Below are positions 44,307-50,613 of a stretch of DNA of 64,000 bases, piece by piece. The position numbers and the translations under genes were made by a program. The notes under the pieces are model-generated. The model made no database searches. It saw only the letters and a list, made by a program, of their open reading frames with translations, and was not told where the DNA came from. The first letter of the stretch is position 1. Every line of letters begins with the position of its first letter. Where the stretch lies: contig JAUVEN010000002.1 of the NCBI GenBank assembly GCA_030594815.1, positions 1 to 64,000 on the forward strand, written 5' to 3'. The stretch is from Gammaproteobacteria bacterium. GTDB taxonomy: Bacteria > Pseudomonadota > Gammaproteobacteria > UBA6429 > Thiohalophilaceae.

Positions 44307-45464
44307 CTATTTAAAATGGTCACGGGCAAGCCTGACTAATAACCAACCTGTCATTAATTGCAGAACAATTAAAAAGAATGAAAGCCCTACATACACAACA
44401 TCAAATTTACTAATGATTCCGCTAGCTACCATCGCGTTATTTATAAAGAAATGTCCTGAGACTACTAATGCAACACCAGGACAGATCAAAGCAAAGACTA
44501 CTGGAGAATTTTCCTTTCTATCGAGTAGTAATTTGAAATAGTTCATCCGTTTCATGACTGCCAGGCCCATAAGTACAAACATGATTTGCAGAGAGAAAAC
44601 AGTGACTAGTAAAATAAAGTTTGATCCAGCGTGGCTAAGTTCCAGCGTATGTAGACCATGTTTTACACGCAATATGGCGATAGCTGCCGTAGTTAATATT
44701 GGGATAATTACCCAAAGAGTAGGTAGTGAAGCCAGTGATGCACCTTCCTTAAACATATCATTCATGCCAATAATTAATTTTATTAGGCCAAGAAGTAAAG
44801 CGGTCGTAATGAAGAATAGCGCTAATATACAGCTAATTGCGATGACCATTTTATTATTGCTCAATGCAGCGGGAGCAGAAAGGCCAACACCAATCATGAC
44901 AAAGGCAAAGCTCGGTAATAGTTGGGCAAGTGAATTATTACTGCTGTTATCAAAACTACCATGCTCAAGAATATGGCCGAAGAAACTCAGGTAGATACGG
45001 CTAGCCCATATACCGAGTAGAACAAATATCATAATGGAAATAGGGAACAGCCATTCAATGATATTCCATAGTCCGGGAATAAACACCGCAGCAATAAGAA
45101 AACTGACATTAATACTCATTGCATAGGCTAATGGCATCGCCAGTAGTTGAGTATGGGCGTTGGTGCCTATAATTTTTTCAACATCACCACTTTTAGTGTA
45201 TTGACGGTAGTTTTTGAAATTTAGAAGCAGCCACCAAAAATGCAGATAGCCAAATATTATAATACCTGCCAGGGCAAAAATAATAAGTGCTTGATTGCCA
45301 ATATTTGTCATTTGAAAATAAGATACCCAGTCATTGAAAACAGGAATAGGCTGACCAGTGTGGGGTACCCAGAACATAAGAAACATAAAGAAGGTAATAA
45401 CCATACCACCTGCACCCAGGGCGGCAAGAAAATATAATGGTGACCAATTAGTAATTTGCTTCAT
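44307..45464 (-). CDS. Polytopic membrane protein, TsoY-like
   Basis: The 385-residue protein has about ten membrane helices, starting NWSPLYFLAALGAGGMVITFF and including FGYLHFWWLLLNF and ICPGVALVVSGHFFINNAMV. I associate the overall pattern with the TsoY family, linked with sulfur-oxidising bacteria and including selenoprotein members, but the recollection is weak; similarity to the TehA/SLAC1 anion channels is the alternative. It lies upstream of peroxiredoxin A, which has its own promoter, in a peroxide/iron cluster. Confidence 0.45.
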   Translation of the reverse strand: MKQITNWSPLYFLAALGAGGMVITFFMFLMFWVPHTGQPIPVFNDWVSYFQMTNIGNQALIIFALAGIIIFGYLHFWWLLLNFKNYRQYTKSGDVEKIIGTNAHTQLLAMPLAYAMSINVSFLIAAVFIPGLWNIIEWLFPISIMIFVLLGIWASRIYLSFFGHILEHGSFDNSSNNSLAQLLPSFAFVMIGVGLSAPAALSNNKMVIAISCILALFFITTALLLGLIKLIIGMNDMFKEGASLASLPTLWVIIPILTTAAIAILRVKHGLHTLELSHAGSNFILLVTVFSLQIMFVLMGLAVMKRMNYFKLLLDRKENSPVVFALICPGVALVVSGHFFINNAMVASGIISKFDVVYVGLSFFLIVLQLMTGWLLVRLARDHFK

Positions 45465-45566
45465 GATAGAAAACGCCTATTAGTTGTTAAATTACGTAAT
45501 ATATTTTGATGCTTAAATGTACATGAAATTGTAGCTTAATCTCTCAATTAATTTTTCGGTTATAAC

Positions 45567-45653
45567 GTTTTGCGTAACTGGCTGCCTGAAGCTGCGAAGC
45601 GAAGCGGCGCAGTTTTAGGCAGCCCAAGTTGACGTGATTGTTAGAAATTACTT
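45567..45653 (-). other. attC-like imperfect palindrome
   Basis: On the minus strand TTCTAACAATCACGTCAACTT leads into GGGCTGCCTAAAACTGC, then a complementary GCAGCTTCAGGCAGCC, then AGTTACGCAAAACGTTATAA. One side of the second paired box carries a single extra base, as in attC sites, and core-like AAC/GTT triplets lie at both ends, but the cores deviate from consensus. It follows the tail of a decayed peroxiredoxin gene. A similar hairpin downstream of peroxiredoxin B (47295-47340) suggests it could instead be a copied terminator. Confidence 0.4.
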
Positions 45654-45661
45654 CCAACTTC

Positions 45662-45728
45662 TTACAGCTCCTTTGTGCAGAAATACCTGCCTGTACACTC
45701 ATAGCCTTCAGTGATACGAGCTTCGTTT
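45662..45728 (-). pseudogene. C-terminal remnant of a third peroxiredoxin gene
   Basis: Read on the minus strand this gives ARITEGYECTGRYFCTKEL and a stop, clearly the ending of the two intact peroxiredoxins (ARMNEGYECTDWYFCKKDL in composite). The rest of the gene is missing; the ZIP transporter gene begins only 10 bases away. It records a former additional copy, lost by deletion. Confidence 0.8.
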
Positions 45729-45738
45729 CATAACTAAT

Positions 45739-46473
45739 CTAAGGCTTTGATAAAACGATTATTATGGCAACCAGAACACCACCACTCAATGCAACAAAAC
45801 TGTATTTCTTATGTTCCTGTTCTGCTTTAGGTAAAAGGTGCGTTGCACCGACATAGACCAGTGCACCAGCGGACAGTGCTAATAAAGCTCCCAAAGTTGG
45901 TTTATCAATTTCACTTATGATGGGGTATGAGATCAGCATACCAAGCGGAGTCGTTAAAGCAGCTGAAAGAAAAGCCAGAATCATAGCGTTTCGTTCTTTA
46001 AATCCGCCTTTCAATAATAATAGATATATGATGATACCTTCAGGAAATTCATGTAATACCATCCCTGCAGTTGCAAGAAATCCAGTAAAAATACTTACCG
46101 TAAAAGCAATCGAATAAACAAAGCCATCTAAGAGTGAATGAATGCCGATGCCTATCATTGGCACCAGCGCGATACCATATTGCTCTTTTTCCGGATTTTT
46201 TTGACATACGAATGCTGTAATAAAGCGATTAAATAAATGTAAGCTAAAAAACCCTACCAGCAGATAGGTCGGAGCATGGGGATTCATTGAAAAAGATTTC
46301 GGGATAATATGAAGAAATGATGCGGATATAAGAACTCCTGCGGCGAAACACATAAAATATGTACTGTTACGCTGCCCCCAGCCGACAAAATTACGTATTG
46401 TATATATGCCTACCGAGGTGACAATGGCTGCTAATAAACTGGTAGCAAGAGCTGTCCAAAAAGTATTTTCCAT
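45739..46473 (-). CDS. ZIP-family divalent metal transporter
   Basis: About eight helices with the ZIP signatures IHSLLDGFVYSIAF (helix 4) and LHEFPEGIIIYLLL (helix 5), whose His, Asp, Glu residues bind the metal. These importers carry Zn2+, Fe2+ or Mn2+. The length is 244 residues. It starts 10 bases after the ferritin-like gene, so it is in its operon; together with the ferritin-like genes this suggests iron. Confidence 0.88.
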   Translation of the reverse strand: MENTFWTALATSLLAAIVTSVGIYTIRNFVGWGQRNSTYFMCFAAGVLISASFLHIIPKSFSMNPHAPTYLLVGFFSLHLFNRFITAFVCQKNPEKEQYGIALVPMIGIGIHSLLDGFVYSIAFTVSIFTGFLATAGMVLHEFPEGIIIYLLLLKGGFKERNAMILAFLSAALTTPLGMLISYPIISEIDKPTLGALLALSAGALVYVGATHLLPKAEQEHKKYSFVALSGGVLVAIIIVLSKP

Positions 46474-46482
46474 ATTAAAAAT

Positions 46483-46938
46483 TTATTTAAAGTGTTGGCT
46501 GCGACGACGATGTAACCTTCGTCCATCACCCGGGTTATCTTCTCTTTCGACACATCGTTGAAAGGCAGGAAGATGGTTTTCTTTTGAAGCTCTTTGTAAT
46601 TGTATGAGTACCTCTTGAACATCCGGGTATTCTATTGTTGATTCAAGTAACCTGTTATACATTTCAGCATTTTCGATTTCAGCTTCAACTCCTACGCGAC
46701 AAGCTTCAAGTATCGATGAGGGTAATTCTATACGTGACTCCCAATCATCTTCGGGCACAGTGACATCATATTTTTCAAACAGCGGTAATAATGCTTCGAT
46801 ATGCCGACTTTCGGCTTCTACGATATTGATGAAGGGCCGTATTTCACCAAACTGGCTTATAACAAGACGATATGTTGCTCGTGCTTTGTATTCATCATTG
46901 ATCGCTTCTATAAGAACATTACTTAATATCTCTGACAT
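46483..46938 (-). CDS. Ferritin-like protein (DUF2202-like)
   Basis: The 151-residue helical protein has two repeated carboxylate/His helices, DEYKARATY plus ESRHIEALL and AEIENAEMY plus ASKENHLPAFQR, the arrangement of a di-iron four-helix bundle. The N-terminal AINDEYKARATY pattern recalls DUF2202 proteins. The C-terminal tail is short and basic (GRRLHRRRSQHF). The ribosome leader GAGAGAATAATGTC is the same as that of the next ferritin-like gene upstream. A ferroxidase or iron-binding role is likely. Confidence 0.7.
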   Translation of the reverse strand: MSEILSNVLIEAINDEYKARATYRLVISQFGEIRPFINIVEAESRHIEALLPLFEKYDVTVPEDDWESRIELPSSILEACRVGVEAEIENAEMYNRLLESTIEYPDVQEVLIQLQRASKENHLPAFQRCVEREDNPGDGRRLHRRRSQHFK

Positions 46939-46965
46939 TATTCTCTCTCGTAAAATAGGCCTTGC

Positions 46966-47253
46966 CTATTTATGTGCGATTGGCTTTTCAGTAAACAGAT
47001 AATCTTTTAATTCTTTATCCATAGCTGGATCTTTTCTTCGTATCCATTCTAAAACCATGGCGGCATGTTCTTTTTCTTCATCACGGTTGTGTGCAAGTAT
47101 TGCTCTTAGTTCATCATCTTTACATGCATCAACTCTTTGGTTGTACCAATCAACTGCTTCTAATTCTTCCATTAATGAAGTAATAGCTCGATGCATGTCT
47201 CGTGTTTCATCAGAAAGTTCTTCAAGGGGTTCGTGGTAACCTTCGTTTGACAT
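46966..47253 (-). CDS. Encapsulated-ferritin (EncFtn) homologue without targeting tail
   Basis: The 95 residues align without gaps to what I recall of Rhodospirillum rubrum EncFtn: HEPLEELSDETRDMHRAI, then MEELEAVDWYNQRVDA, then LAHNRDEEKEHAAM. The di-iron ligands correspond to Glu30, Glu60 and His63, the entry site to Glu29 and Glu32, and Trp36 is kept. EncFtn normally ends in a short peptide that directs it into an encapsulin shell; here the protein stops at FTEKPIAHK and no shell gene is in the window. GGGAGAG precedes the ATG. It is in an operon with the DUF2202-like and ZIP genes. Confidence 0.85.
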   Translation of the reverse strand: MSNEGYHEPLEELSDETRDMHRAITSLMEELEAVDWYNQRVDACKDDELRAILAHNRDEEKEHAAMVLEWIRRKDPAMDKELKDYLFTEKPIAHK

Positions 47254-48331: not shown

Positions 48332-49469
<1,138 letters not shown>

Positions 49470-50026: not shown

Positions 50027-50111
50027 GCCTAACGTTATGGTTAAGCGGGTTTTTAAAAGAGAAGCGAGAGCGCCTCTTTTAAAAAGTCCGATTTGAACGT
50101 CTTGTTAGGGC
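50027..50111 (-). other. attC recombination site
   Basis: On the minus strand it reads GCCCTAACAAGACGTTCAAA, then a long stem (CTTTTTAAAAGAG with its complement CTCTTTTAAAAAC), then CCGCTTAACCATAACGTTAGGC. Both outer cores fit RYYYAAC/GTTRRRY with at most one mismatch, and one inner box carries the unpaired extra base typical of attC. It contains the brnA stop codon, as is common for cassettes. Confidence 0.82.
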
Positions 50112-50329
50112 TTTGAATTCCATGAGATATCAACTTTTCTATGGTGGGAAACACAGTCTCTAAGATATAAATTAATTAAACTTTGGTAAGGAACACCAGA
50201 GTCTTTAGCCATGCCTTTGAAGTAATCAATAACATCTTCGCTTAAACGAATAGTTACTGGCTTTTTAAGTTTAGATGCGTAAGGATTTTTACGCGATTTC
50301 ATATTAGATAAGTCATATTCTTTTTTCAT
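50105..50329 (-). CDS. brnA: BrnA-family antitoxin
   Basis: The 74-residue protein has a basic N-terminus (KSRKNPYASKLKKPVTIRLS) followed by a ribbon-helix-helix DNA-binding motif (EDVIDYFKGMAKDSGVPYQSL). RHH antitoxins of this type neutralise BrnT and repress their own operon. It starts inside the end of brnT (ATGA overlap), giving coupled translation. The stop lies inside the attC. Confidence 0.82.
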   Translation of the reverse strand: MKKEYDLSNMKSRKNPYASKLKKPVTIRLSEDVIDYFKGMAKDSGVPYQSLINLYLRDCVSHHRKVDISWNSKP

Positions 50330-50613
50330 AATGAGCCACCTTTATATAGCTTACTTTCATTTTTTGTTGCTTTACGAGCAGATATGATTCGAATTATATT
50401 TCCTTCTTCTTTTTCGCAGTGACACACAAGTAATAATTTAGATTCGTTACTAAGGCCAAGCATGAGAAAGCGATCTTCTATTTCGGAATTTTCTTCATCA
50501 TAGAATTGAACGGCAAAATCATCATAAAACACCGATTGGGCTTCTTCGAAAGAAACATCATGTTTCTTTTTATTTGATATTGCTTTGGTTGGATTCCATT
50601 CGAACTCAATCAT
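50326..50613 (-). CDS. brnT: BrnT-family toxin (ribonuclease)
   Basis: The 95-residue protein begins FEWNPTKAISNKKKHDVSFEEA, the BrnT signature (FEWDxxKxxxNxxKHGVSFEEA), and has RFLMLGLSN, then IIRIISARKATKNE with the catalytic Arg region. BrnT is a RelE-like RNase that arrests growth. The start ATG is inside a palindrome and has no Shine-Dalgarno, so translation may be leaderless. The pair probably stabilises the cassette array. Confidence 0.85.
   Translation of the reverse strand: MIEFEWNPTKAISNKKKHDVSFEEAQSVFYDDFAVQFYDEENSEIEDRFLMLGLSNESKLLLVCHCEKEEGNIIRIISARKATKNESKLYKGGSL

What the first reader, a model, noticed from the sequence alone, without database searches (positions are those of the whole stretch)
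45739..47253. Orphan encapsulated-ferritin homologue beside a second ferritin-like protein
The 95-aa protein keeps the EncFtn di-iron and entry-site residues but lacks the usual C-terminal targeting peptide, and no encapsulin gene lies in the window. It shares an operon with a DUF2202-like ferritin-fold protein and a ZIP importer, between two peroxiredoxin genes. This may be a shell-free iron oxidation or storage system linked to peroxide defence.
Basis: partly seen in the sequence, partly recalled or inferred. Interest (0 to 1): 0.75.

Follow-up and report, generated by a model that had tools for sequence, protein, structure and literature searches.

The report
Shell-free encapsulated-ferritin relative, short-tailed class
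This small iron-oxidising protein belongs to a widespread bacterial class that looks like the cargo of protein nanocages but has no cage or docking tag, and in many relatives it sits inside a peroxide-defence operon, suggesting that it detoxifies iron and peroxide in the open cytoplasm.

Summary
The 95-aa gene at 46966-47253 (-) is an EncFtn with all ferroxidase, entry and exit residues and no targeting peptide. It matches the orphan NE0167 structure (PDB 3k6c) end to end. A 2024 review already names this class s-FLP and calls its encapsulation unclear.

No family-1 encapsulin gene was found in the 94%-complete genome. In 369 genomes of the same class the family splits cleanly. Short tails (9-18 aa): 82 genomes, no targeting peptide, never beside a shell. 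Long tails: 20 genomes, 19 beside a shell. Only 4 of the 82 have a shell anywhere, each with its own long-tailed cargo. So the class is very probably shell-free.

The window's DUF2202-like/ZIP partners are not a conserved context (1 of 171 other loci). The recurrent context, unreported in the papers I could search, is the aerobic rubrerythrin module: s-FLP usually lies between its Fe-S oxidoreductase and DUF3501 (26 class loci, 20 families). This genome has that module elsewhere, without s-FLP.

Best reading: a cytosolic decameric ferroxidase that removes Fe2+ with O2 or H2O2, not a store. Shell-free is well supported; the chemistry and peroxide role are inferred.

The parts
46966..47253 (-). 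Short-tailed EncFtn (s-FLP), 95 aa, intact di-iron, entry and exit residues, no targeting peptide
   Evidence: PF22277, TIGR04535, PDB 3k6c full length; tail class and residue conservation
46483..46938 (-). DUF2202-like four-helix ferritin-fold protein, 151 aa; invariant E16, E43xxH46, E87, H122 (the fourth-helix ExxH glutamate is missing)
   Evidence: PF09968 30.4 bits; alignment of 8 relatives; model pLDDT 90 matching MJ0754, TM 0.8
45739..46473 (-). ZIP-family metal transporter, 244 aa, ZupT-related
   Evidence: PF02535 E=1.3e-27; also directly next to the DUF2202-like gene in L060 and L213
47370..48029 (-). Peroxiredoxin copy 1, upstream on the same strand, 116 nt before the s-FLP gene
   Evidence: NF009668 299 bits
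43402..44061 (-). Peroxiredoxin copy 2, 94% identical protein
   Evidence: NF009668 299 bits; repeat D1; protein identity
45656..45720 (-). Remnant of a third peroxiredoxin 3' end directly downstream of ZIP
   Evidence: Repeat D2, 82-83% identity between copies

Best explanation
The gene encodes a shell-free (s-FLP) encapsulated-ferritin-type protein. It most likely forms the D5 decamer seen for NE0167/3k6c, with a di-iron ferroxidase centre built at each dimer interface. It works loose in the cytoplasm and oxidises Fe2+ with O2 or, more likely in its physiological setting, H2O2. That lowers Fenton-active iron and peroxide together with rubrerythrin or peroxiredoxin, without storing a mineral. 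Shown here by sequence: membership, intact active site, absence of targeting peptide, absence of family-1 shell genes, and recurrent placement in the rubrerythrin/RFO/DUF3501 module. Inferred: the decamer in this species, the substrate, the electron partner and the physiological role. In this genome the gene has left that module and is linked instead to a DUF2202-like protein, a ZIP importer and a peroxiredoxin.
For: All ligands are invariant in 91 short-tailed and 21 long-tailed sequences. The family is bimodal in tail length: 0 of 91 short-tailed sequences have the [VI]GxL targeting motif against 18 of 21 long-tailed. Shell presence is independent of the short form (4/82 vs 15/287, p=1.0) and nearly perfectly tied to the long form (19/20 vs 0/349, p=7e-31), also with one genome per family. 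In 49 of 50 further s-FLP genomes no shell was found. s-FLP lies with the rubrerythrin/RFO/DUF3501 module in 26 class loci and L061, against none of 22 long-tailed loci. Genome-wide co-occurrence with DUF3501 is 71% vs 36% (p=2e-8; one genome per family p=9e-6). OxyR-like or peroxiredoxin neighbours occur in L132, L161, L093, L095, L106 and the window. Purifying selection is strong: pairwise differences at codon positions 1/2/3 are 0.13/0.06/0.55.
Against: No biochemical data exist here. Most s-FLP loci have no conserved neighbour. In the 50 genomes with the closest s-FLPs, DUF3501 presence is only 58%, little above the 43% class background. No Fur, OxyR, PerR, IscR, Zur or SoxR site is enriched upstream. 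R. rubrum EncFtn without its shell produced iron precipitates in vitro (PMC5012862), which would be a poor cytosolic product unless another protein takes the Fe3+.
Confidence: 0.6

Rival explanations
1. It is a real encapsulin cargo loaded in trans, through an undefined binding sequence in the short tail.
For: A 2024 review leaves this open: the 10-residue tail might hold an undefined signal and sterics would allow it (PMC11202242). The tail end I92-x-H94 is conserved.
Against: No family-1 shell gene in this genome, in 49/50 other s-FLP genomes, or in 78/82 class genomes; the four exceptions each have their own tagged cargo beside the shell. The LFT-x-KPI segment is shared with long-tailed cargos, which add a separate targeting peptide.
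Confidence: 0.04
2. EncFtn, the DUF2202-like protein and ZIP form a dedicated iron uptake/oxidation/storage complex.
For: Tight spacing of 27 and 9 nt; the same three genes are near each other in a Colwellia MAG, L060, with an extra 76-aa ORF between.
Against: Only one of 171 other s-FLP loci shows it. The DUF2202-like/ZIP pair occurs in G443, which has no EncFtn match. The DUF2202-like protein was found in 8 of 369 genomes, none with an adjacent EncFtn except the window.
Confidence: 0.1
3. s-FLP is an accessory to rubrerythrin: it loads or repairs its di-iron site, or passes iron or electrons between RFO and rubrerythrin, rather than detoxifying iron itself.
For: Placement inside the operon between RFO and DUF3501, 3-180 nt from its neighbours on the same strand; RFO is proposed to be an electron carrier (PMC5114695).
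Against: About 30% of s-FLP genomes lack DUF3501 and most loci are not in the operon; the ferroxidase ligands are fully conserved, as for a catalyst.
Confidence: 0.2
4. It is a relic of a former encapsulin system that lost its shell, without a present function.
For: The tree allows several switches between the long and short form (5 changes; at least 2 forced by well-supported branches).
Against: 85-97% protein identity across Gamma-, Beta-, Alpha- and Zetaproteobacteria with near-saturated third positions is not how a relic evolves.
Confidence: 0.02

Closest known systems
s-FLP class of EncFtn, NE0167 of Nitrosomonas europaea (PDB 3k6c)
   Same: Same length (95 aa), full-length match at E=1.6e-49, no targeting peptide
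   Different: No known difference in the protein; the window gene sits with DUF2202-like and ZIP genes. The neighbourhood of NE0167 was not available to me
Encapsulated ferritins with a targeting peptide (R. rubrum Rru_A0973 5da5, H. ochraceum 5n5f)
   Same: Same fold family and all ferroxidase, entry and exit residues
   Different: Those carry a 10-40 residue disordered tail with a targeting peptide and lie beside an encapsulin gene; short forms also differ at N38, C44, R57/D58, I71, E81, D84 and K90
Aerobic-type rubrerythrin module RBR/RFO/DUF3501 (PMC5114695)
   Same: Many s-FLP genes in the class sample lie in it, usually between RFO and DUF3501
   Different: EncFtn is not mentioned in the passages of that paper that I read (its figure key has only 'hypothetical protein'); in this genome the module is on another contig, without s-FLP
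DUF2202 protein MJ0754 (PDB 3q4n, 3q4r with Zn)
   Same: Four-helix ferritin fold, TM about 0.8, for the second gene of the window operon
   Different: 24-25% identity only; the metal site lacks one usual glutamate

Membership tests
EncFtn family (PF22277) | Profile match over the whole domain | tested here: met
   E=3.5e-45, profile positions 2-85 of 85
EncFtn family (PF22277) | Ferroxidase ligands Glu32/Glu62/His65 (R. rubrum numbering), entry site Glu31/Glu34 | tested here: met
   E30/E60/H63 and E29/E32 by alignment; invariant in 112 sequences
EncFtn family (PF22277) | Open decamer of D5 symmetry | not testable with these tools
   Only a monomer model was possible; the homologue 3k6c is reported to form decamers (PMC11202242)
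s-FLP class | Short form without long C-terminal tail or targeting peptide | tested here: met
   Tail of 10 aa after profile position 85, no motif
Encapsulin cargo (FLP-TP) | C-terminal targeting peptide | tested here: not met
   0 of 91 short forms carry it; 18 of 21 long forms do
Encapsulin cargo (FLP-TP) | Family-1 encapsulin gene in the genome, normally adjacent | tested here: not met
   PF04454 absent from G000; the same search finds shells beside 19 of 20 long-tailed cargos
Encapsulin cargo (other shell families) | Family-2 or other shell in the genome | tested here: inconclusive
   PF19307 gave nothing in G000, but the controls were silent as well
Aerobic-type rubrerythrin operon | Gene lies with RBR, RFO and DUF3501 | tested here: not met
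   Met in 26 other class loci, not for the window copy; the genome's RFO/DUF3501 pair is on contig C123
Iron-storage ferritin | Closed cage with internal mineral cavity | not testable with these tools
   Not expected for a two-helix EncFtn; R. rubrum EncFtn alone did not mineralise iron (PMC5012862)
DUF2202 (partner protein) | PF09968 profile and four-helix fold | tested here: met
   30.4 bits against cut-off 22; fold match to MJ0754

The most novel reading that the evidence does not exclude
Short-tailed EncFtn is a regular, so far unrecognised part of the aerobic rubrerythrin peroxide-defence system: a cytosolic decameric enzyme that couples Fe2+ oxidation to H2O2 removal without storing iron, with packaging into encapsulin shells being one derived use of the same enzyme.
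Probability: 0.3. Interest if true: 0.75.

Novelty: new member of a known kind. Interest (0 to 1): 0.5.

Why it matters
[quoted passage not shown] The genome counts here make encapsulation of the short class very unlikely, and the rubrerythrin-module context gives a concrete, testable role. It also shows that the NCBI model TIGR04535 labels all tested short forms as encapsulin-associated, although their genomes mostly have no encapsulin.

Tried and rejected
Neighbour clustering of the 80 closest loci found no conserved neighbour; only the broader class sample showed the rubrerythrin module, so the first negative was a sampling effect. A palindromic-looking enriched upstream motif (CCGTAGGCCTACGG) turned out to be the coding 3' end of the RFO gene, LLRxAYGI-stop. 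Fur, OxyR, PerR, IscR, Zur and SoxR sites upstream: not enriched over shuffles. The idea that s-FLP replaces classical ferritins: rejected, since 28/82 s-FLP genomes and 93/287 others lack a strong PF00210 match (p=0.79; counts made by hand, test). The own genome itself has only a weak PF00210 match (8.9e-8). Family-2 encapsulin search: uninformative because the controls were silent. The EncFtn monomer model is only moderate (pLDDT 77) and adds nothing to 3k6c. Literature for MJ0754/DUF2202 was not in the library.

Full report
WHAT IS THERE. Five genes on the minus strand, in transcription order: peroxiredoxin 48029-47370, s-FLP 47253-46966, DUF2202-like 46938-46483, ZIP 46473-45739, then, after TsoY-like 45464-44307, a second peroxiredoxin 44061-43402. 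s-FLP to DUF2202-like is 27 nt and DUF2202-like to ZIP 9 nt; the first peroxiredoxin ends 116 nt before s-FLP. An operon of three genes is inferred from spacing, not shown. A 65-nt remnant of the peroxiredoxin 3' end lies at 45656-45720, immediately downstream of ZIP. The s-FLP/DUF2202-like/ZIP block is therefore bracketed by a full peroxiredoxin gene and a peroxiredoxin 3' fragment, which is what integration by recombination at that gene would leave. This is inference.

IDENTITY. The 95-aa protein matches PF22277 (3.5e-45), TIGR04535 above its cut-off (138 vs 125 bits) and the whole of PDB 3k6c, NE0167 of Nitrosomonas europaea (1.6e-49). R. rubrum EncFtn uses Glu32, Glu62 and His65 for the ferroxidase centre, Glu31/Glu34 as entry site and His57/Glu61/Glu64 as proposed exit site (PMC5012862). 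The aligned residues E30, E60, H63; E29, E32; H55, E59, E62 are present and were invariant or nearly so in 91 short-tailed and 21 long-tailed sequences. A 2024 review names the class s-FLP, says it was first classed as non-encapsulated, and leaves its encapsulation open (PMC11202242). The protein is therefore a new member of a described class.

IS IT SHELL-FREE? PF04454 finds no encapsulin in the window's genome (2.8 Mb, 94% complete), nor in 49 of 50 other genomes with close s-FLPs; the fiftieth has a separate long-tailed cargo with shell (L087). In 369 genomes of the same class, PF22277 and PF04454 were searched in the same set. The loci were fetched and tail lengths measured. The distribution is bimodal: 9-18 residues after profile position 85 in the short form, 29 or more in the long form. 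Long forms carry targeting peptides such as SLGIGSLK or FTVGDLKG; of 21 long forms 18 fit [VI]GxL, against 0 of 91 short forms. Shell genes occur in 19 of 20 long-form genomes and 4 of 82 short-form genomes; those four also carry a long-form cargo beside the shell. Fisher tests: long vs shell p=7e-31, short vs shell p=1.0; with one genome per family p=1e-12 and 0.68. The lists for these tests were copied by hand from the tables. The long-form result is also a positive control for the sensitivity of the shell search. Limit: family-2 shells could not be excluded.

CONSERVATION. The 80 closest loci span Gamma-, Beta-, Alpha- and Zetaproteobacteria at 85-97% protein identity. Pairwise differences at codon positions 1/2/3 are 0.13, 0.06 and 0.55, so the gene is under strong purifying selection. 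Positions typical of the short form are N38, C44, R57/D58, I71, E81, D84 and K90. A tree of the cores needs about five switches between long and short (at least two forced), with many unresolved forks.

CONTEXT. The window's partners are not a conserved context. The DUF2202-like and ZIP genes were found beside s-FLP in only one of 171 other loci, a Colwellia MAG (L060), with one extra ORF between. The DUF2202-like/ZIP pair recurs in G443, where no EncFtn was found. What recurs is different. Among 91 short-form loci of the class sample, DUF3501 lies nearby in 25, the RFO-like Fe-S protein in 21 and rubrerythrin in 16; against 22 long-form loci there were none. The usual order is rubrerythrin, RFO, s-FLP, DUF3501, same strand, with gaps of 3-180 nt; 26 class loci from 20 families plus L061 contain part or all of it (loci and families counted by eye). 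The rubrerythrin/DUF3501/RFO cluster was described in 2016 as the aerobic-type rubrerythrin lineage (PMC5114695); I found no paper in the held library that places EncFtn in it. Genome-wide, DUF3501 is present in 58 of 82 short-form genomes against 102 of 287 others (p=2e-8; one genome per family 28/37 vs 41/121, p=9e-6). In the 50 genomes with the closest s-FLPs it is 29 of 50, a weaker signal. Other peroxide-linked neighbours: an OxyR-like regulator directly downstream in L132, peroxiredoxin plus OxyR-like gene in L161, and peroxiredoxin-family genes in L093, L095 and L106. This genome has RFO and DUF3501 on contig C123 with 229 nt between them and no s-FLP remnant there.

PARTNER PROTEIN. 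The DUF2202-like protein is modelled as a four-helix bundle (pLDDT 90) matching MJ0754 (TM 0.8). Invariant E16, E43xxH46, E87 and H122 resemble a di-metal site, but the fourth helix lacks the glutamate of ExxH. Its function is open.

MECHANISM. From established EncFtn biochemistry (PMC5012862): Fe2+ enters through the glutamate entry site, is oxidised at the dimer-interface centre and leaves at the outer rim; the ring has no cavity and alone gives precipitate, not a mineral core. Without a shell, storage is unlikely. Given the peroxide-defence context I favour a cytosolic Fe2+/peroxide detoxifying ferroxidase that works with rubrerythrin or peroxiredoxin. Whether EncFtn prefers O2 or H2O2 is stated to be unknown (PMC7762939). 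Confidence is about 0.95 for no family-1 shell and 0.6 for the combined mechanism.

VERDICT. A real, well-described-by-structure but functionally open class member. The new elements are the genome-wide evidence against encapsulation and the link to the aerobic rubrerythrin module, both computed here and neither tested at the bench.

Noticed in passing
window 45656-45720 (-): Third, truncated copy of the peroxiredoxin 3' end; together with the two full copies it brackets the s-FLP/DUF2202-like/ZIP block and suggests insertion by recombination.
   Followed up: partly
window 45550-45652 (-): Hairpin-forming stretch TCTAACAATCACG...AACGTTATAACC (17-nt arms, 88% complementary) that resembles an integron attC site, in the orientation expected downstream of a minus-strand cassette. 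Resemblance from memory; no attC model was run.
   Followed up: partly
L221 (G000:C123) 250-480: Where relatives carry s-FLP between RFO and DUF3501, this genome has about 190 nt of AT-rich sequence with inverted TTTGCG-type arms that looks like a small transposon-like repeat.
   Followed up: no
window 44307-45464 (-): TsoY-family protein (NF047644, 435 bits), a family whose name includes selenoproteins, between the two peroxiredoxin genes.
   Followed up: no
window 50105-50613 (-): Adjacent small ORFs of 95 and 74 aa that look like a BrnT/BrnA-type toxin-antitoxin pair; family assignment by eye only.
   Followed up: no
window 48522-49469 (+): ORF resembling an IS110-type transposase just upstream of the first peroxiredoxin gene; by eye only.
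   Followed up: no
L165 (G163): Only long-tailed EncFtn without shell or targeting peptide: a 37-residue tail rich in Lys, Ala and Pro.
   Followed up: no
NCBIfam TIGR04535: The model names all 16 tested short-tailed proteins as encapsulin-associated (matches at E<=0.001; the window protein also passes the curated cut-off), although the genomes searched mostly lack encapsulin: a likely source of misleading annotation.
   Followed up: partly
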